NCBI GenBank assembly: GCA_900318645.1
Contig: ONLH01000011.1
Span: 1 to 64,000 of the forward strand
Length of the DNA stretch: 64,000 nt
Direction: 5' to 3'
Origin: an uncultured Prevotellaceae bacterium
GTDB taxonomy: Bacteria; Bacteroidota; Bacteroidia; Bacteroidales; Muribaculaceae
Below the pieces are notes generated by a model. The model was not told the DNA's origin and did no database searches. It saw nothing but the letters and a program-made list of their open reading frames with translations. The position numbers were made by a program, and so were the translations under genes. Below, piece after piece: positions 18,543 to 23,767 of the stretch; the first letter of the stretch is position 1; the number at the start of each line of letters is the position of its first letter.

Positions 18543-19980
18543 CTTCCTGTTGTTGATTATTGTTAGTAAATGATGAATTGAAAATCTTCGCCACTGTCGC
18601 AAGTTCCTCATCGGTCATCTGCCACTTCAGCTTGCTCGCCAGCGAAAGCTCCGACTCCTCAATCATGGCCTCGCCGATTTGGCCGCGCCAGTCGTTGAGG
18701 GTGATGAGGCCCTTGTTGAACTGCTCCAGGCAACGCTCGTTGACGAGCTTCTTCACTTCCTCCGCCTCCTTCAGACCCTCCTGCAGACAGTCAACGCCGG
18801 AGAAGTCGCAGTCAAGGTAATACTTGCTGCCGCCCTCTTCCATGCGCAGGAAGGTCGTGAAGTCCTTGCAGAAACGCTTGGCCAACGGGATGACGACTGA
18901 TGAGTACACAGCCTTCTCCGCTGTCGCCTGGTTGCTGAACGTCGCCTGGTCCTTGCGGGGAACAAGCACGCTCGGGATGCCGTAGGCACCCGCTATGGTG
19001 ATCGCATCAGCCAAGGTCTCGTCAAAAGGCTGCAGCTCGCTGATGCTGAGGTTCGTCCTAACAAATGACATGGGGATGTTCGAGACACCGAACGGGAACT
19101 GGCCCTCGCTGAAGCCGTAGGTGTCGGTGAGTTCCTTCACGAACGCCTTCTTCTCGTCGCTGGTCATGGCCACCGTGCCCGCCTTGTCCTGCTGCTGCTG
19201 GACGATGAAGCCCACACCGCCGCGCTTGACGTAGATGATGTTTCGTGCGGAGTACACGGCAATCAGGTTGCCGATGGGCTTCTTCAACGGGGCGAGACGG
19301 CTCATGGCCTTCAGGAAGCCGACGCGGCCGCCGTAGCTGGGCAGTCCGTCACGGTCATGCCACACCTGGTACGTCGGGATCAGCTCGGTCAGTTTCGAGC
19401 CGAAGGCGATGCGGTAGCCCTTCACGATGTCCTCTATGCCGCCGGGCGTGACGCCGAACAGCGGAACCGAATACATGTTCTTGGGCTCGATTTTTACTCG
19501 AGTGGCGGGCAGGTTCCAGTAGGTGTCGCAGTACTTCCACTTCAAGGCTTCCGCATCCAGGTGGTCACCCATCGCGGCACGCACAAAGGCGTTGCCGGTG
19601 CAGAGCTTGTACACGAAGTGGTTGTAGATGAACTCGTACCAGCCCATCAGGCAGTTCGGGTTGCTCAGTATGCCGTTCACGGGATGTGACAGACGCCACA
19701 CCACGCTGTCGTCACTCGAACGCCTAACGACGAAACTCGCACCAGCGACGCGGCTGGCGATGAAGTCTATCGGCCAGAACACCTCGGGGACCGTGGCGAA
19801 CAGCGTCAGGAAATTGTCGCCGGCATACTTCGGGTGGAGGATGCCCTCCAGTACATCAGGAGCCAGGACGCTGTAGTTCGTCGCGCTCGGTGCGTTGGTG
19901 ACAACAGGAACGTCGGACAGCTGCTGGCCGCTGCCGTCCTTCTTCCTCATCGGGAATATGTCTCGTAAGTTAAATCCCAT
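18496..19980 (-). CDS. Phage portal protein (HK97 family)
   Basis: 494 aa from MGFNLRDIFPMRKKDG; an upstream in-frame ATG overlaps the -7 box of promoter L2 and is rejected. Typical portal features: early hydrophobic/Trp segment (EVFWPIDFIASRVAG), NPNCLMGWYEF, a central PTYQVWH block and a Gln/Asn-rich C-terminus. Forms the dodecameric vertex for DNA entry. Separated from the terminase gene by 138 bp that hold L2 and an inverted repeat, so head genes may be transcribed independently of terminase. Confidence 0.88.
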   Translation of the reverse strand: MGFNLRDIFPMRKKDGSGQQLSDVPVVTNAPSATNYSVLAPDVLEGILHPKYAGDNFLTLFATVPEVFWPIDFIASRVAGASFVVRRSSDDSVVWRLSHPVNGILSNPNCLMGWYEFIYNHFVYKLCTGNAFVRAAMGDHLDAEALKWKYCDTYWNLPATRVKIEPKNMYSVPLFGVTPGGIEDIVKGYRIAFGSKLTELIPTYQVWHDRDGLPSYGGRVGFLKAMSRLAPLKKPIGNLIAVYSARNIIYVKRGGVGFIVQQQQDKAGTVAMTSDEKKAFVKELTDTYGFSEGQFPFGVSNIPMSFVRTNLSISELQPFDETLADAITIAGAYGIPSVLVPRKDQATFSNQATAEKAVYSSVVIPLAKRFCKDFTTFLRMEEGGSKYYLDCDFSGVDCLQEGLKEAEEVKKLVNERCLEQFNKGLITLNDWRGQIGEAMIEESELSLASKLKWQMTDEELATVAKIFNSSFTNNNQQQEDGTNQQPKEGSAVQG

Positions 19981-19995
19981 GTCAGTCGTTTTGTG

Positions 19996-20043
19996 CAAAT
20001 GTAAATTTTTCGCTTTTCGGTTACTTCAATTTCTTGAAATCTC
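19996..20043 (-). promoter_or_regulatory. Putative late promoter L2 before portal
   Basis: TTACATTTG followed by GCACAAAACGAC lies 16 bp before the portal ATG, and GAGATTTCA lies 30 bp upstream, the same layout as L1 (6340-6387). TACATTTG fits TAnnTTTG. Confidence 0.5.
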
Positions 20044-20085
20044 AAAAAGCGAAACAGTTACAAAACAGTATCTAAAAAGCTATGA

Positions 20086-20106
20086 AACACGAAATTATAT
20101 CGTGTT
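20086..20106. promoter_or_regulatory. Inverted repeat AACACGA-N7-TCGTGTT
   Basis: Perfect 7-bp arms around AATTATA, between terminase stop and portal. Not followed by a T run on the minus strand, so an operator or weak attenuator rather than a clear terminator. Confidence 0.4.
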
Positions 20107-20118
20107 GAACCGCAAAGT

Positions 20119-23100
20119 CTAATTTTTTATGACATACGAAACAAAGCCGCTGAGCAGCACGCTGGCCTCTATGTCACGGCCCTTGTCTGCATTGTAGTCC
20201 AGCAGGTGGGTGACGAACTCCGAATAGTCGGGGCTATCGTTGACTGCCGTCTCGTTGAACAGCACACGGGATTTGACGAAGTCGCTCGTCGCCGCTATGC
20301 GCCTGGCAGGATCGTGTTCCTCATCGCATATCCTCACGGGCATGCCTGCCGTCGCCCTCAGCCTGCGGACGAACTGGTAATAGGCGTCACCGCACTCGAC
20401 GATGCACATGTCACCGTCGCGGCTCTCGATGGCACCGGCTATCTCATCAGTCGAGGTGTTCTCACGGTACACCACATCCACCACACGCCAGTGATTGCCG
20501 ACCAGCACACCCTCAAGCAGACAGAAGCGCCCGCCGATGTTCGGCAGCACATACAGCACACGTCGGGTGGCCACCGCACTGTCGGCCGTCGCGGGATTGT
20601 AGAAGTGGATGGCACCGTCACGGGCGAACAGGTTGCGCTTGCGGCGGTTGCTGAACAGGACGTAGTTCTCACGCAGCAGGTCATGGACCACATAGCGGAA
20701 CGTGTCGCAGTTGTGAACTAAGATGTTGTTTGCAAAGAACTCCCCGTCATCCACGGAGATGTCATACACTGCCGCCTCTCCACCTACTGAGAGCGGCACA
20801 CCGTTTAGAGCAACACTCTTTTTTAGAGTACTTATTGACCTTAAATTTTGCACCACACACCCTACAAGTGCGTTCAACATCATCGAGGCCATTGTCTCTG
20901 CGCCACTTTGATTTGCAGCTGTTTGAGCAGAACTTTGCGCCTTGAATAGCCCTCGATGTGAACTCTCTGCCGCACACAATACACTTGAAAGTCCTGTACT
21001 CCCTGTTTTCCATCTGCTTTTTAGAGTTTTGAGAATGCCATTTGCGACCCTCTTCGGATTTATGCCAGTCAGCAGCTTTCTGCCTGTTGTCTTCGAGAAC
21101 TTTGCGAAGTTTGGCTTTACGCCCATCTGAAATGTTTTCATGGTGGTGTTTAACATGATTTTCATTAAGCACAAGGGCGAAATTATCAAGTGTGTTGTTA
21201 TCGTGATTGCCATCAATATGATGAACATCATAGCCTTTAGGAATAGGCCCGTTTGCACACTCCCACATATAGCGGTGCAGGTACTCTTTGACGGTTTTCC
21301 CGTCTCTCTTAATCCATCCACGATAGTACGACCTATCACTTTGAGATTTTGACTCAGGATAGCGAATAAATCTGAAACCGTTGTACTCGATAGTCTCTCT
21401 TTGCATGGTTTTCCGTTTTTGATGGTGGTTATTTTGTCTGTTGATTTTAGCTGATTTGCGGGTATAAAACCACGCTCGGTATATATGGGATGGTTGTCAG
21501 TACACCTCAATTTACCGACACACAAAGATACGATAATTATTTGAGATTTGCAACTTGTACAGAAAGAATTATACACCTTTGAATAACCTTTTCTTGTCAA
21601 TACATAATCTCCAATTTTTACATCAACAATCGGAACATCACCACGCTTAGTTGCTACTATTGTGTCAGCTGTGAAACACAGGTGGCCGTGCTCCTCATAG
21701 GTCTGGTTGGTGGTCTTGTTCTTGACCTTGGTCTTGAGGATGGCGCCGTTGGCATCCTTCTGCACGCTCAGGTAATCCTCTATCGACACCGGGCACTCCT
21801 TGCCGATGGTGATGGAGATGTCGGGAACTGTACCCTCGAAGATGGCGTTGATGAACTCACCCGTCATGGCCACCGACGGGTTCTTGTCACAAACACAGTC
21901 AACAACCTCCACGCCTTCACCCTCCAGCGTGAAGATGAACAGGTCGAGCCACGACCGCTTGTCATCGTCGATGGTGTTCGCTGCCCTGGTACTGGCGTCA
22001 CCATGGAGGTACAGCTTGTCGCTGTACCCGATGGAGCGCAGCCGCTGTGCCGTGGCCTTGGCGGCACGCTTGACGGTGTTGTCGGGACTCTCGGCGCACA
22101 GCTCACCGAACTGCACGATGCGCTGGCTATCCTCGGTGATGTACTGCCAGAACGAGATGGAGATGTAGGGCAGCACGTTGTTGTCGACACTGACGTGGAT
22201 GGGATAGTCGGGGTCGTATGCCGTGGCGGCGGTGTGCATGCCGGTGTTGAACGAGCCGAAGAACTCGCTGCCCGTGCGGATGACGCCCCACTCGCCGAGG
22301 GCATAGATGCGGTAGTAGTCGGGGTCGCTCTGCCTGTCCTTCTCGAAGTCGGCCACACACTGCTCATCGTAGTAGCCATACGTCCCATCAGGGGAACCGA
22401 CTACCCAAAAGTTGTTCATGTAGGTGGACTGGATGATGACGGTGTCTGGCGCATGGTCCTCCATGGCTCCTGTGCTCGGGTTGATGTAGGTCTTCGGCTC
22501 GTTCATCCGCAGGGACTTCACCTCGGTGAACCTGGCAGGGATGCGGCGGCCGTCGATGGTGACACGCATGGAGACGTCGTGCCACTTCTCGCTGTCAAAC
22601 CATGACTTCTTTATCCAGTGCGTCTCACGGATGGGGTTGAAGGTGGCGCTGATCTGCTGGCCTTCCTTACCGCGCAGGCGCTTGCGTATCTGCTTGAAGT
22701 CGCTCTCCTCGAACTCGCTGAACTCCTCCAGGTGCACGCGCTTGTAGTTGGAGATACCCTTGATTTTCTCGGGGTCGTCGAGGCCGCTGAAGTCTATCCT
22801 CGCGCCGTTGTAGCCGCAGCGGATGGAGTTGCGGGTGAACTTGAACCACTCGTCCATGTGCAGTTGCTTGCACGCCACACGGAAGTCCTCATAGATGGAC
22901 TTCTCGATGGATGCGCCGACCTTACGGAAGACGAGGGTGTTCTCTCCGTCGAACATCGTCATCATCAGGATCACCTGGGCGGCGCTGTACGACTTGGCGG
23001 ACGATGAGCCGCCATAGAGGATGATGAAACGCACGGACGGCTCACGCATGAAGCGCATGAGCTGCCACCCGTTCGGATTGAACATCCGGTAATCGTAGCG

Positions 23101-23121
23101 AAAAACCACCTCTTTTGACAT
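20119..23121 (-). CDS. Terminase large subunit precursor, interrupted by an intein
   Basis: 1000-codon frame. Extein residues 1-481 and 805-1000 (677 aa after splicing) form a PBSX/Terminase_3-like packaging motor: Walker A GGSSSAKS (37-44), Walker B hydrophobics with EE at RVHLEEF (128-134), coupling motif SATFNP (158-163), and a nuclease half. The intein (residues 482-804) sits in the nuclease domain at HGHL|CDTFRYV, just before a conserved Asp of the H-x-x-D-x-x-RY motif, a typical choice of an essential site. Splicing would restore HGHLCDTFRYV. ATPase packages DNA into the prohead; the nuclease cuts concatemers. The small subunit gene lies 88 bp upstream. Confidence 0.92.
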   Translation of the reverse strand: MSKEVVFRYDYRMFNPNGWQLMRFMREPSVRFIILYGGSSSAKSYSAAQVILMMTMFDGENTLVFRKVGASIEKSIYEDFRVACKQLHMDEWFKFTRNSIRCGYNGARIDFSGLDDPEKIKGISNYKRVHLEEFSEFEESDFKQIRKRLRGKEGQQISATFNPIRETHWIKKSWFDSEKWHDVSMRVTIDGRRIPARFTEVKSLRMNEPKTYINPSTGAMEDHAPDTVIIQSTYMNNFWVVGSPDGTYGYYDEQCVADFEKDRQSDPDYYRIYALGEWGVIRTGSEFFGSFNTGMHTAATAYDPDYPIHVSVDNNVLPYISISFWQYITEDSQRIVQFGELCAESPDNTVKRAAKATAQRLRSIGYSDKLYLHGDASTRAANTIDDDKRSWLDLFIFTLEGEGVEVVDCVCDKNPSVAMTGEFINAIFEGTVPDISITIGKECPVSIEDYLSVQKDANGAILKTKVKNKTTNQTYEEHGHLCFTADTIVATKRGDVPIVDVKIGDYVLTRKGYSKVYNSFCTSCKSQIIIVSLCVGKLRCTDNHPIYTERGFIPANQLKSTDKITTIKNGKPCKERLSSTTVSDLFAILSQNLKVIGRTIVDGLRETGKPSKSTCTAICGSVQTGLFLKAMMFIILMAITITTHLIISPLCLMKIMLNTTMKTFQMGVKPNFAKFSKTTGRKLLTGINPKRVANGILKTLKSRWKTGSTGLSSVLCAAESSHRGLFKAQSSAQTAANQSGAETMASMMLNALVGCVVQNLRSISTLKKSVALNGVPLSVGGEAAVYDISVDDGEFFANNILVHNCDTFRYVVHDLLRENYVLFSNRRKRNLFARDGAIHFYNPATADSAVATRRVLYVLPNIGGRFCLLEGVLVGNHWRVVDVVYRENTSTDEIAGAIESRDGDMCIVECGDAYYQFVRRLRATAGMPVRICDEEHDPARRIAATSDFVKSRVLFNETAVNDSPDYSEFVTHLLDYNADKGRDIEASVLLSGFVSYVIKN
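20710..21678 (-). mobile_element. Intein in terminase large subunit (323 codons)
   Basis: Starts with Cys (CFTADTIVATKRGDVPIVDV, block A), has block B (RCTDNHPIYT, with the conserved T-x-x-H), block F (VYDISVDDGEFFANNILV) and ends HN followed by extein Cys, block G. All residues needed for class 1 splicing are seen. Blocks A/B lie in the first ~90 residues and F/G in the last ~22; the ~215 residues between have no DOD or HNH motif in this frame, because that DNA encodes an HNH enzyme in the -1 frame. The segment is clearly more AT-rich than the flanking terminase, a sign of recent arrival. Confidence 0.9.
20762..21406 (-). CDS. HNH endonuclease nested in the intein in the -1 frame
   Basis: 214 aa with its own ATG. 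N-terminal NUMOD-like part (GFRFIRYPESK...YLHRYMWE) typical of free-standing phage HNH enzymes; HNH core YDVHHIDGNHDNNTLDNF with HH at 62-63 and downstream N and H (N82-H84); then two zinc-ribbon-like units (C142/C145-C160/C164 and C181/C184-C199/C203) and stop. The whole gene lies inside the intein coding region, in the frame shifted by -1, and stops just inside block F. It presumably makes the homing cut that spreads the intein. No strong Shine-Dalgarno; a weak slippery run (C AAA AAC) lies 12 bp before the ATG. Confidence 0.88.
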   Translation of the reverse strand: MQRETIEYNGFRFIRYPESKSQSDRSYYRGWIKRDGKTVKEYLHRYMWECANGPIPKGYDVHHIDGNHDNNTLDNFALVLNENHVKHHHENISDGRKAKLRKVLEDNRQKAADWHKSEEGRKWHSQNSKKQMENREYRTFKCIVCGREFTSRAIQGAKFCSNSCKSKWRRDNGLDDVERTCRVCGAKFKVNKYSKKECCSKRCAALSRWRGGSV

Positions 23122-23209
23122 TTTGCTCTATCTCCCTTATTTGACACTTGCCACACTTTTGCCGAGTTTTGACAACATTTTGCCAAAACTTCCCTTGTGT
23201 GACATTTTG

Positions 23210-23767
23210 CTATTGCTCGGGCTCGTCATCCTCGGGCAGTTCCGAGAAGTCCATGACGTGCTTGCCCTCGATGGCCATGTTGCCGCCCATCTCGACTTTC
23301 TTCGGTGCCTCCCAGCCGTTCATCGAGGCAAGCAGCTTGGCGGCTTCGGTCTTGCCGTTGAACTCATAGGATACCTCACCGCGCTTGTTCTTGATCTTCT
23401 TCAAGGCTTTGCGCAGGTGCACCGGCATCTGGTTGGGTGCCTTCAGCTTCGGCTTGCCTGTCGCCTCGTCGATGTAGTACATGTCGGTGGGGTCAACCTC
23501 CACGATGCCCATGAGGACTTTCTCGACCTTCGCACGGTCCACCCTGGTGGCCTCGGCATACTCCTCCTGCAGCTCTGCTATCCTTGTGGCAACCTTGCGG
23601 TTGCTGAGCAGCTTGCTTGCGCACTCCCAGACGGTGCTCTGCTTCATTTTGGCGCAGTTGTAGGCAAGGCGGTAGGCCTCGCTTGCGTTGCCTATCTCGA
23701 CATAGTTGCGGCAGAACTTCTCCTGCTTGGGCGTTAATGGTCTTGTGTTGTCTTTTTGCTGTGCCAT
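23210..23767 (-). CDS. Terminase small subunit
   Basis: 185 aa. N-terminal helix-turn-helix-like segment LTPKQEKFCRNYVEIGNASE followed by AYRLAYNC is the hallmark of the Terminase_2 small-subunit family; a central coiled region and an acidic C-terminal tail (FSELPEDDEPEQ) follow. It binds the packaging site and stimulates the motor. The 88 bp to the large subunit repeat short GCAAAA/TGTCA words and could be part of a packaging site (speculative). Confidence 0.85.
   Translation of the reverse strand: MAQQKDNTRPLTPKQEKFCRNYVEIGNASEAYRLAYNCAKMKQSTVWECASKLLSNRKVATRIAELQEEYAEATRVDRAKVEKVLMGIVEVDPTDMYYIDEATGKPKLKAPNQMPVHLRKALKKIKNKRGEVSYEFNGKTEAAKLLASMNGWEAPKKVEMGGNMAIEGKHVMDFSELPEDDEPEQ

What the first reader, a model, noticed from the sequence alone, without database searches (positions are those of the whole stretch)
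20710..21678. Intein whose homing endonuclease is a separate gene nested in the -1 frame
Seen: the terminase frame is open for 1000 codons and has intact intein blocks A, B, F and G, but its central ~215 residues show no endonuclease motif. The same DNA, shifted by -1, encodes a complete 214-aa HNH protein with its own ATG (21406) and stop (20762), which ends inside block F. Known: inteins normally carry DOD or HNH domains in frame. Inference: a free-standing HNH gene landed in a mini-intein and both frames are kept open; a random 214-codon stretch without stop has chance of order (61/64)^214, about 3e-5. Selection would act on both frames at once.
Basis: partly seen in the sequence, partly recalled or inferred. 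Interest (0 to 1): 0.92.

Follow-up and report, generated by a model that had tools for sequence, protein, structure and literature searches.

The report
Endonuclease gene overprinted inside terminase intein
A self-splicing insert in a phage DNA-packaging gene carries its likely DNA-cutting spreading enzyme as a second gene written over the same DNA in another reading frame, an arrangement that recurs in viruses of many bacteria and some archaea.

Summary
The window holds a terminase large-subunit gene with a 323-aa class-1-type intein. The middle of the intein, in the -1 frame, is a complete 214-aa HNH endonuclease with its own ATG. A relative has the same frames, with the intein 97.7% identical while the exteins are 78-79% identical. 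A near-identical empty site exists too. I collected 141 distinct HNH sequences nested in -1 in an open frame; in 134 both intein halves score in that frame. They come from viral contigs and from genomes of many bacterial phyla and three archaeal groups. HNH frames start at an ATG (73 of 85), often with a Shine-Dalgarno signal. The HNH frame is conserved; in the overlap the intein frame is kept only free of stops. AlphaFold gives a confident Hint fold around a mostly low-confidence middle, and a confident HNH in the other frame. Relatives whose intein frame is closed look like split terminase inteins with the HNH between the halves. Best reading: a mobile intein whose homing endonuclease is separately translated by overprinting. 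Splicing and cleavage are untested. Closest print found: an out-of-frame HNH in a non-intein insert (ShiLan domain). One relevant preprint could not be read.

The parts
21679..23121 (-). TerL N-extein (codons 1-481)
   Evidence: Terminase_3 2.2e-40, phrog_2
20710..21678 (-). Intein, 323 aa, Cys1 ... His-Asn | Cys+1, in frame with TerL
   Evidence: Hint_2 9.6e-7, Intein_splicing 5.2e-5 (below its curated cut-off); profile of 50 relatives matches gp41-1, a bacterial intein-like domain, NrdJ-1, DnaX and DnaB inteins in PDB
21409..21678 (-). N-terminal splicing region (residues 1-90; blocks A and B)
   Evidence: mean pLDDT 90-97 for residues 1-80, 78 for 81-90; blocks in A4
20762..21406 (-). HNH homing endonuclease gene, 214 aa, -1 frame to TerL, ATG start, TGA stop inside block F
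   Evidence: HNH_3 5e-12, phrog_15471 6.7e-43, I-HmuI in PDB by sequence and, weakly, by fold, mean pLDDT 90
21161..21283 (-). HNH_3 core (residues 42-82 of the HNH protein; H62, H63, N70, N71, N75 invariant in 32 relatives)
20798..20983 (-). Two Cys4 zinc-finger-like modules (C142/C145/C160/C164 and C181/C184/C199/C203), invariant in 32 relatives
   Evidence: DNA-binding role inferred
20710..20802 (-). C-terminal splicing region (residues 293-323; blocks F and G)
   Evidence: mean pLDDT 94-96 from residue 301 on, 72 for 291-300
20119..20709 (-). TerL C-extein, starts CDTFRYVV; uninvaded relatives read SDTFRYVV
23210..23767 (-). terminase small subunit (context)
   Evidence: phrog_51 2.2e-30

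Best explanation
It is a mobile terminase intein whose homing endonuclease is encoded as a separate, overprinted gene. The terminase frame is translated straight through; the two splicing regions fold together as a Hint domain, excise the intein and join the exteins. The roughly 200 residues read off the back of the HNH gene are a largely unstructured, stop-free linker. Independently, ribosomes start at an internal ATG in the -1 frame and make an I-HmuI-like HNH endonuclease with two zinc-finger-like modules. This cuts intein-less terminase genes at the insertion site in the nuclease motif (HL|SDTFRY), and repair copies the intein, with a short flank, into them. Shown by sequence: both frames open here and in relatives, start signals in relatives, purifying selection on the HNH frame, empty sites, the near-identical intein in diverged terminases. 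Inferred: splicing, cleavage, site specificity, and independent initiation in this particular phage.
For: Recurrence: of 134 HNH-family ORFs with score >=100 in 195 records (18 lower-scoring hits dropped), 92 (86 distinct) have no stop in the +1 frame, none has one stop, and 42 have 2-17; 85 of the 86 have an intein block G in that open frame (the 86th, L098, is a degenerate copy). Two scans keyed on block F/G plus C-extein, not on the HNH, gave 76 of 80 and 78 of 80 (overlapping sets) with the HNH in -1, none in another frame, the rest small inteins without it. Stop avoidance: 0 stops where own-codon shuffling predicts 2.19 per gene in the 86, against 8.3 observed and 8.2 predicted in the 40 others (the 86 were picked for zero stops, so the unpicked 78 of 78 is the fairer count). 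Initiation: an ATG in the HNH frame within -12..+4 codons of the domain start in 73 of 85, against 14 of 85 in the equal window upstream and 18 and 27 of 85 in the other frames; Shine-Dalgarno tetramers peak at -8 to -14. Selection: substitutions by HNH codon position 1694/1370/2894 over 52 non-independent pairs; window against L001 1/3/13, p 0.0003. Mobility: window and L001 share the intein at 97.7% but exteins at 78-79%; L010 is an empty site with exteins 96.7 and 97.3% identical to the window. Fold contrast.
Against: No splicing, cleavage or translation data exist for any member examined here. The window's own HNH start has no Shine-Dalgarno motif; Bacteroidota often lack one (recalled). 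The window's open frame alone is not improbable given its codons (11%). In L147, the nearest relative with a named host, the N-half lies in another frame than the rest, so that copy is split or has a base error. The two closest pairs show no third-position excess (4/1/3 and 3/4/3). The window's block F has Gly where most relatives have His, which might slow splicing. The fold match to I-HmuI is loose (rmsd 10.7, no hit at E<=0.001).
Confidence: 0.86

Rival explanations
1. The HNH is made as a fusion to the intein N-half by programmed -1 frameshifting near 21410, not from its own start.
For: The frame relation is -1 in every overprinted copy, and the -1 frame is open for 30 codons upstream of the ATG in the window (ORF 244 aa from stop to stop).
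Against: Start-codon and Shine-Dalgarno peaks at the domain start in relatives. The preference for -1 is explained by base composition: the +1 frame of this HNH family has far fewer stops than the +2 frame in the 40 genes not in an open intein (8.3 against 21.6). In 22 naturally split relatives the HNH frame relative to the N-half is 0 in 2, 1 in 11 and 2 in 9. I did not search for slippery sites.
Confidence: 0.05
2. The HNH is a packaging cofactor of the terminase (as proposed for HNH genes beside terminases), not the intein's homing enzyme.
For: HNH proteins are described as components of phage packaging machines (title of Kala 2014 seen in a reference list). Free-standing relatives lie beside terminase genes in two phages.
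Against: The HNH comes and goes with the intein: five close relatives (L010-L014) with uninterrupted TerL lack both at this site. The only solved structure matched by sequence is the homing enzyme I-HmuI. Whether the uninvaded phages carry another HNH elsewhere was not checked.
Confidence: 0.06
3. Fossil: an in-frame HNH intein shifted by indels, or an assembly error, with the HNH no longer made.
For: Degenerate or shifted members exist (L098, L249, L216, L147).
Against: 134 of 141 nested copies have both intein halves in one open frame with the HNH in -1; catalytic residues are invariant in 32; HNH codon position 3 changes most. No in-frame relative of this HNH family was seen.
Confidence: 0.02
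4. The stretch is a group I or II intron with an HNH ORF, removed from RNA.
For: HNH ORFs are common in phage introns (recalled).
Against: No Rfam intron match even at E<=1 in 19900-23300; a Hint fold flanks the HNH; the frame is open throughout.
Confidence: 0.01

Closest known systems
ShiLan domain and the Pacc40 gp60 insertion (PMC11855218; abstract, sections 3.6 and 4.3 and passages read)
   Same: A hidden HNH endonuclease in another frame of an insertion that stays open in the host-gene frame, in phages; spread suggests homing.
   Different: For the ShiLan insertion no splicing domain was found, and it sits in a DNA methylase; here the HNH is inside an intein with intact splicing blocks in terminase.
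Inteins with an in-frame HNH domain, e.g. dCTP deaminase intein of cyanophage CL131 with HintN and HNH_3 (PMC6293099, passages read)
   Same: Hint domain plus HNH_3 endonuclease in one intein; that intein was shown to excise.
   Different: There the HNH is in the same frame and part of the intein protein; here it is a separate product.
Fractured genes: split inteins with a free-standing endonuclease gene between the halves (Dassa 2009, title only, content recalled; phage MIJ3 PolB split intein with an HNH ORF, PMC6892783, passages read)
   Same: Endonuclease as an independent gene within an intein gene; closest PDB inteins to this family include gp41-1 and NrdJ-1, which come from such genes (recalled).
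   Different: In the window the intein is not split; both halves stay in one frame because the endonuclease is overprinted.
I-HmuI (PDB 1u3e)
   Same: HNH homing endonuclease; profile match E 4e-4, best Foldseek hit, probability 1.00 but E 1.2e-3 and rmsd 10.7.
   Different: Encoded in a group I intron (recalled); 16% identity.

Membership tests
Class 1 intein | Cys1, block B TxxH, block G HN followed by C/S/T | tested here: met
Class 1 intein | precise insertion: uninterrupted homologues continue across the junction | tested here: met
   L010-L014 read EEHGHL|SDTFRYVV
Class 1 intein | Hint fold | tested here: met
   predicted model only
Class 1 intein | autocatalytic protein splicing | not testable with these tools
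   needs expression
HNH homing endonuclease (I-HmuI-like) | HNH motif residues | tested here: met
   invariant in 32 relatives, HNH_3 in 32 of 32
HNH homing endonuclease (I-HmuI-like) | spread of the element between diverged alleles | tested here: met
   intein 97.7%, exteins 78-79%
HNH homing endonuclease (I-HmuI-like) | co-conversion of flanks | tested here: inconclusive
   N flank 97 and 93% in the last 60 bases, 73-80% farther out; C flank shows no clear tract (87, 77, 87%)
HNH homing endonuclease (I-HmuI-like) | cuts the intein-less site | not testable with these tools
   biochemistry needed
Canonical endonuclease-bearing intein | endonuclease in the same frame as the splicing domain | tested here: not met
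Fractured-gene split intein | intein halves on separate ORFs with an endonuclease gene between | tested here: not met
   window TerL frame open; both halves flank the HNH in 21 of 40 related loci without an open intein frame
ShiLan-type hidden HNH insertion | out-of-frame HNH in an open insertion | tested here: met
ShiLan-type hidden HNH insertion | no splicing domain in the insertion | tested here: not met
   Hint domain present
Group I/II intron | intron RNA structure | tested here: not met
   no Rfam intron match

The most novel reading that the evidence does not exclude
Overprinting is the standard and ancient way in which terminase inteins of tailed viruses of bacteria and archaea carry their endonuclease, with initiation (in some, possibly transcription) signals for the HNH embedded in the codons of the splicing domain. 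Split inteins arise when the intein frame, no longer kept open, gains stops, so that overprinted inteins are the missing step between contiguous inteins and fractured genes.
Probability: 0.4. Interest if true: 0.92.

Novelty: new variant of a known kind. Interest (0 to 1): 0.84.

Why it matters
In the passages of intein papers that I saw, the endonuclease is in frame, absent, or a separate gene between split halves. An intein class that overprints the endonuclease uncouples splicing from homing: the two proteins can evolve, be expressed and be lost separately, on one stretch of DNA. It gives a large natural set for studying overlapping genes where one frame is selected for sequence and the other mainly for staying open, and it makes the origin of split inteins testable. 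Annotators miss these genes: in three named phage records the terminase is annotated and the HNH is not.

Tried and rejected
Intron reading: no Rfam match. Chance or error: rejected by recurrence. Circularity: the 86 and 141 sets were picked as open in the +1 frame or as lying inside an open container, so their openness is partly by construction; the count made without that choice is. Promoter lead: TATAAT-like hexamers 6 bases before the HNH start in 8 of 83 elements at <=1 mismatch looked like leaderless promoters, but they fall on a conserved intein motif (GD-I-I). At the fixed position 23 of 127 have <=1 mismatch, and Ile codon ATA is used 14 of 18 against 42% elsewhere in the splicing domain, p 0.0025 (one search used a column one off and is superseded). 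Kept as a lead only. Tree (quick method, 168 of 181 distinct HNHs after thinning): 10 changes overprinted versus others, only 3 forced by well supported branches, 16 with three states; direction unresolved. Window's own order: 23 of 149 genomes matched at E<=0.001, only the window's own over the whole profile; the partial matches were not examined. Papers: bioRxiv 2025.01.02.630785 and Dassa 2009 are not held; their content was not seen.

Full report
What is there. On the minus strand the window has a terminase small subunit (23210-23767), a terminase large subunit (TerL, 20119-23121, 1000 codons), portal, head protease and major head protein. TerL is interrupted by an intein of 323 residues, 20710-21678, beginning CFTADTIVAT and ending ILVHN, followed by Cys. 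Pfam finds only Hint/intein families in the intein frame (same for 50 relatives at 0.001); PDB comparison with a profile of the 50 gives gp41-1 (7.5e-22), a bacterial intein-like domain, NrdJ-1, DnaX and DnaB inteins. The DNA from 21406 to 20762, shifted by -1, is a 214-aa protein with HNH_3 (5e-12) and two Cys4 modules; 32 of 32 HNH relatives match HNH_3, and the profile's only PDB hit at 0.01 is I-HmuI. G+C is 42% in the intein against 58-59% in the exteins, which suggests foreign origin.

Two frames, two folds. AlphaFold on the intein frame gives mean pLDDT 90-97 for residues 1-80 and 94-96 for 301-323, and about 37-57 for most of the part overlapped by the HNH, apart from a helix at 144-186 reaching 79-81; the HNH frame of the same DNA gives mean pLDDT 90, though pTM only 0.45. 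Foldseek: gp41-1 intein first for the former; I-HmuI first for the latter, but loosely (E 1.2e-3, rmsd 10.7).

It moves. L001, a viral contig, has TerL exteins 79.4 and 78.0% identical to the window but an intein 97.7% identical. The N flank is 97 and 93% identical in the last two 30-base steps and 73-80% beyond; the C flank shows no such tract. L010 is the empty site: exteins 96.7 and 97.3% identical to the window, EEHGHL|SDTFRYVV without intein, +1 residue Ser where both invaded genes have Cys. Over 200 bases L001's C flank is 99% identical to uninvaded L013, its N flank 86%.

It is a family. I searched with the HNH protein and with an alignment of 13 relatives. In 195 records (window included), 152 ORFs hit the profile and 134 score at least 100. 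Of these, 92 have no stop in the +1 frame, none has one, and 42 have 2-17; none is open in the +2 frame (fewest stops there 1, in L061 and L154). After removing identical DNA: 86 and 40. Of the 86, 85 have intein block G in the open frame, with the HNH stop 11-30 codons before the splice junction in 83 and about 1 codon before in two; L098 is degenerate. By eye most sit at the TerL nuclease motif (DH|C.DA.RY). L160 has two overprinted inteins in one TerL (the second HNH scores 90), one beside a DELD motif; L179 from a Nitrosotalea bin has two further inteins by eye in the same frame, at least one with LAGLIDADG-like motifs. Named records: Acinetobacter phage Highwayman, Tetrasphaera phage TJE1, Rhodobacteraceae phage LS06-2018-MD07, gut phage MT838676 and a Halobacterium plasmid. 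Eighteen of the 48 genome-contig loci are of this kind, titled as Bacteroidota, Pseudomonadota, Bacillota, Actinomycetota, Acidobacteriota, Myxococcota, Nitrospirota, Thermodesulfobacteriota, Patescibacteria and the archaea Thermoplasmatales and Nitrosotalea; most are draft or metagenome bins, so hosts are as titled. With loci of a second set, 141 distinct nested sequences. In 134 of the 141 both intein halves score in one open frame with the HNH in -1; in 6 one half is not scored (two cut by contig ends); in L147, a Prevotellaceae bin and near relative of the window, the N-half lies in another frame, so that copy is split or has a base error.

How common. A scan by block F/G and C-extein (21-row alignment without HNH letters) kept 80 of 561 loci: 76 have the HNH in -1 (among them a remnant in L216, a deleted copy in L249 and copies cut by contig ends), 0 in frame, and 4 none: L222, L237, L264 and L240, by eye mini-inteins. 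A second scan with other rows kept 80 of 464; HNHs in any frame were accepted and stops counted afterwards: 78 in -1 with no stop in the intein frame, 2 mini-inteins; many contigs are shared with the first.

How the HNH is made. An ATG in the HNH frame within -12..+4 codons of the profile's domain start occurs in 73 of 85, against 14 of 85 in the equal window upstream and 18 and 27 of 85 in the two other frames; Shine-Dalgarno tetramers peak 8-14 bases before the chosen starts, which were chosen without reference to them. The window and L001 have the ATG but no such motif.

Closed frames and split inteins. Of the 40 HNHs without an open intein frame, 21 have an intein N-half before and a C-half after, 3 have one half, 16 none. 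Lactobacillus phage CL2 is one: annotated terL, HNH endonuclease, then a small unannotated ORF with HN|CMDATRY. In Vibrio phage 1.238.A the HNH is in -1 as here, but the TerL frame has many stops and the C-half is annotated as a hint domain protein; 1.245.O has the same annotation layout, its frames were not translated. In 22 split loci the HNH frame relative to the N-half is 0, 1 and 2 in 2, 11 and 9. L085, split, groups with overprinted genes on the tree, in the same frame relation. The tree needs 16 changes among three states; few are forced, so direction is open. Trans-splicing of these halves is inferred.

In print. Seven full-text searches listed no paper that by title, abstract start or the passages I opened describes an intein with an out-of-frame endonuclease. 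The nearest is the ShiLan domain (PMC11855218), an out-of-frame HNH in a methylase insertion without splicing domains; one genome announcement repeats it (PMC12613952, listing only). Its reference 7, a preprint on actinobacteriophage inteins with 'Non-Canonical Architecture' in the title, is not held and may overlap. In-frame HNH_3 inteins are known (PMC6293099), as is a split PolB intein around an HNH gene (PMC6892783). Passages of PMC5050341, PMC7156551, PMC10448857, PMC3229294 and PMC8228797 were also looked at and do not describe it.

Noticed in passing
L065:1955-2771, L062:2196-2604, L294:2887-3874: Terminase genes that look naturally split by an intein with an HNH gene between the halves: Lactobacillus phage CL2 (C-half unannotated), Brochothrix phage BL3 (only a 74-aa HNH remnant; C-half is gp3) and Vibrio phage 1.238.A (C-half annotated as hint domain protein).
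   Followed up: partly
intein residue 81 region; L103, L084, L081, L130, L109: TGATATAAT-like stretches in the splicing domain, in some ending exactly 6 bases before the HNH start, as a leaderless promoter would; confounded by the conserved GD-I-I motif.
   Followed up: partly
L160:1331-4732: One terminase gene with two inteins, each with its own out-of-frame HNH in the same -1 relation.
   Followed up: no
L179:1-4320: Archaeal (Nitrosotalea bin) terminase frame with three inteins by eye, at least one LAGLIDADG-like in frame, one overprinted HNH.
   Followed up: no
L222, L237, L264, L240, L335, L216, L249: Mini-inteins (125-135 aa where measured) and apparently decaying HNH copies at the same terminase site, as a gain-decay-loss cycle would leave.
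   Followed up: no
L147:3218-4197: Prevotellaceae bin, near relative of the window's element: intein N-half in a different frame from HNH-C-half, so either a young split intein or a base error.
   Followed up: no
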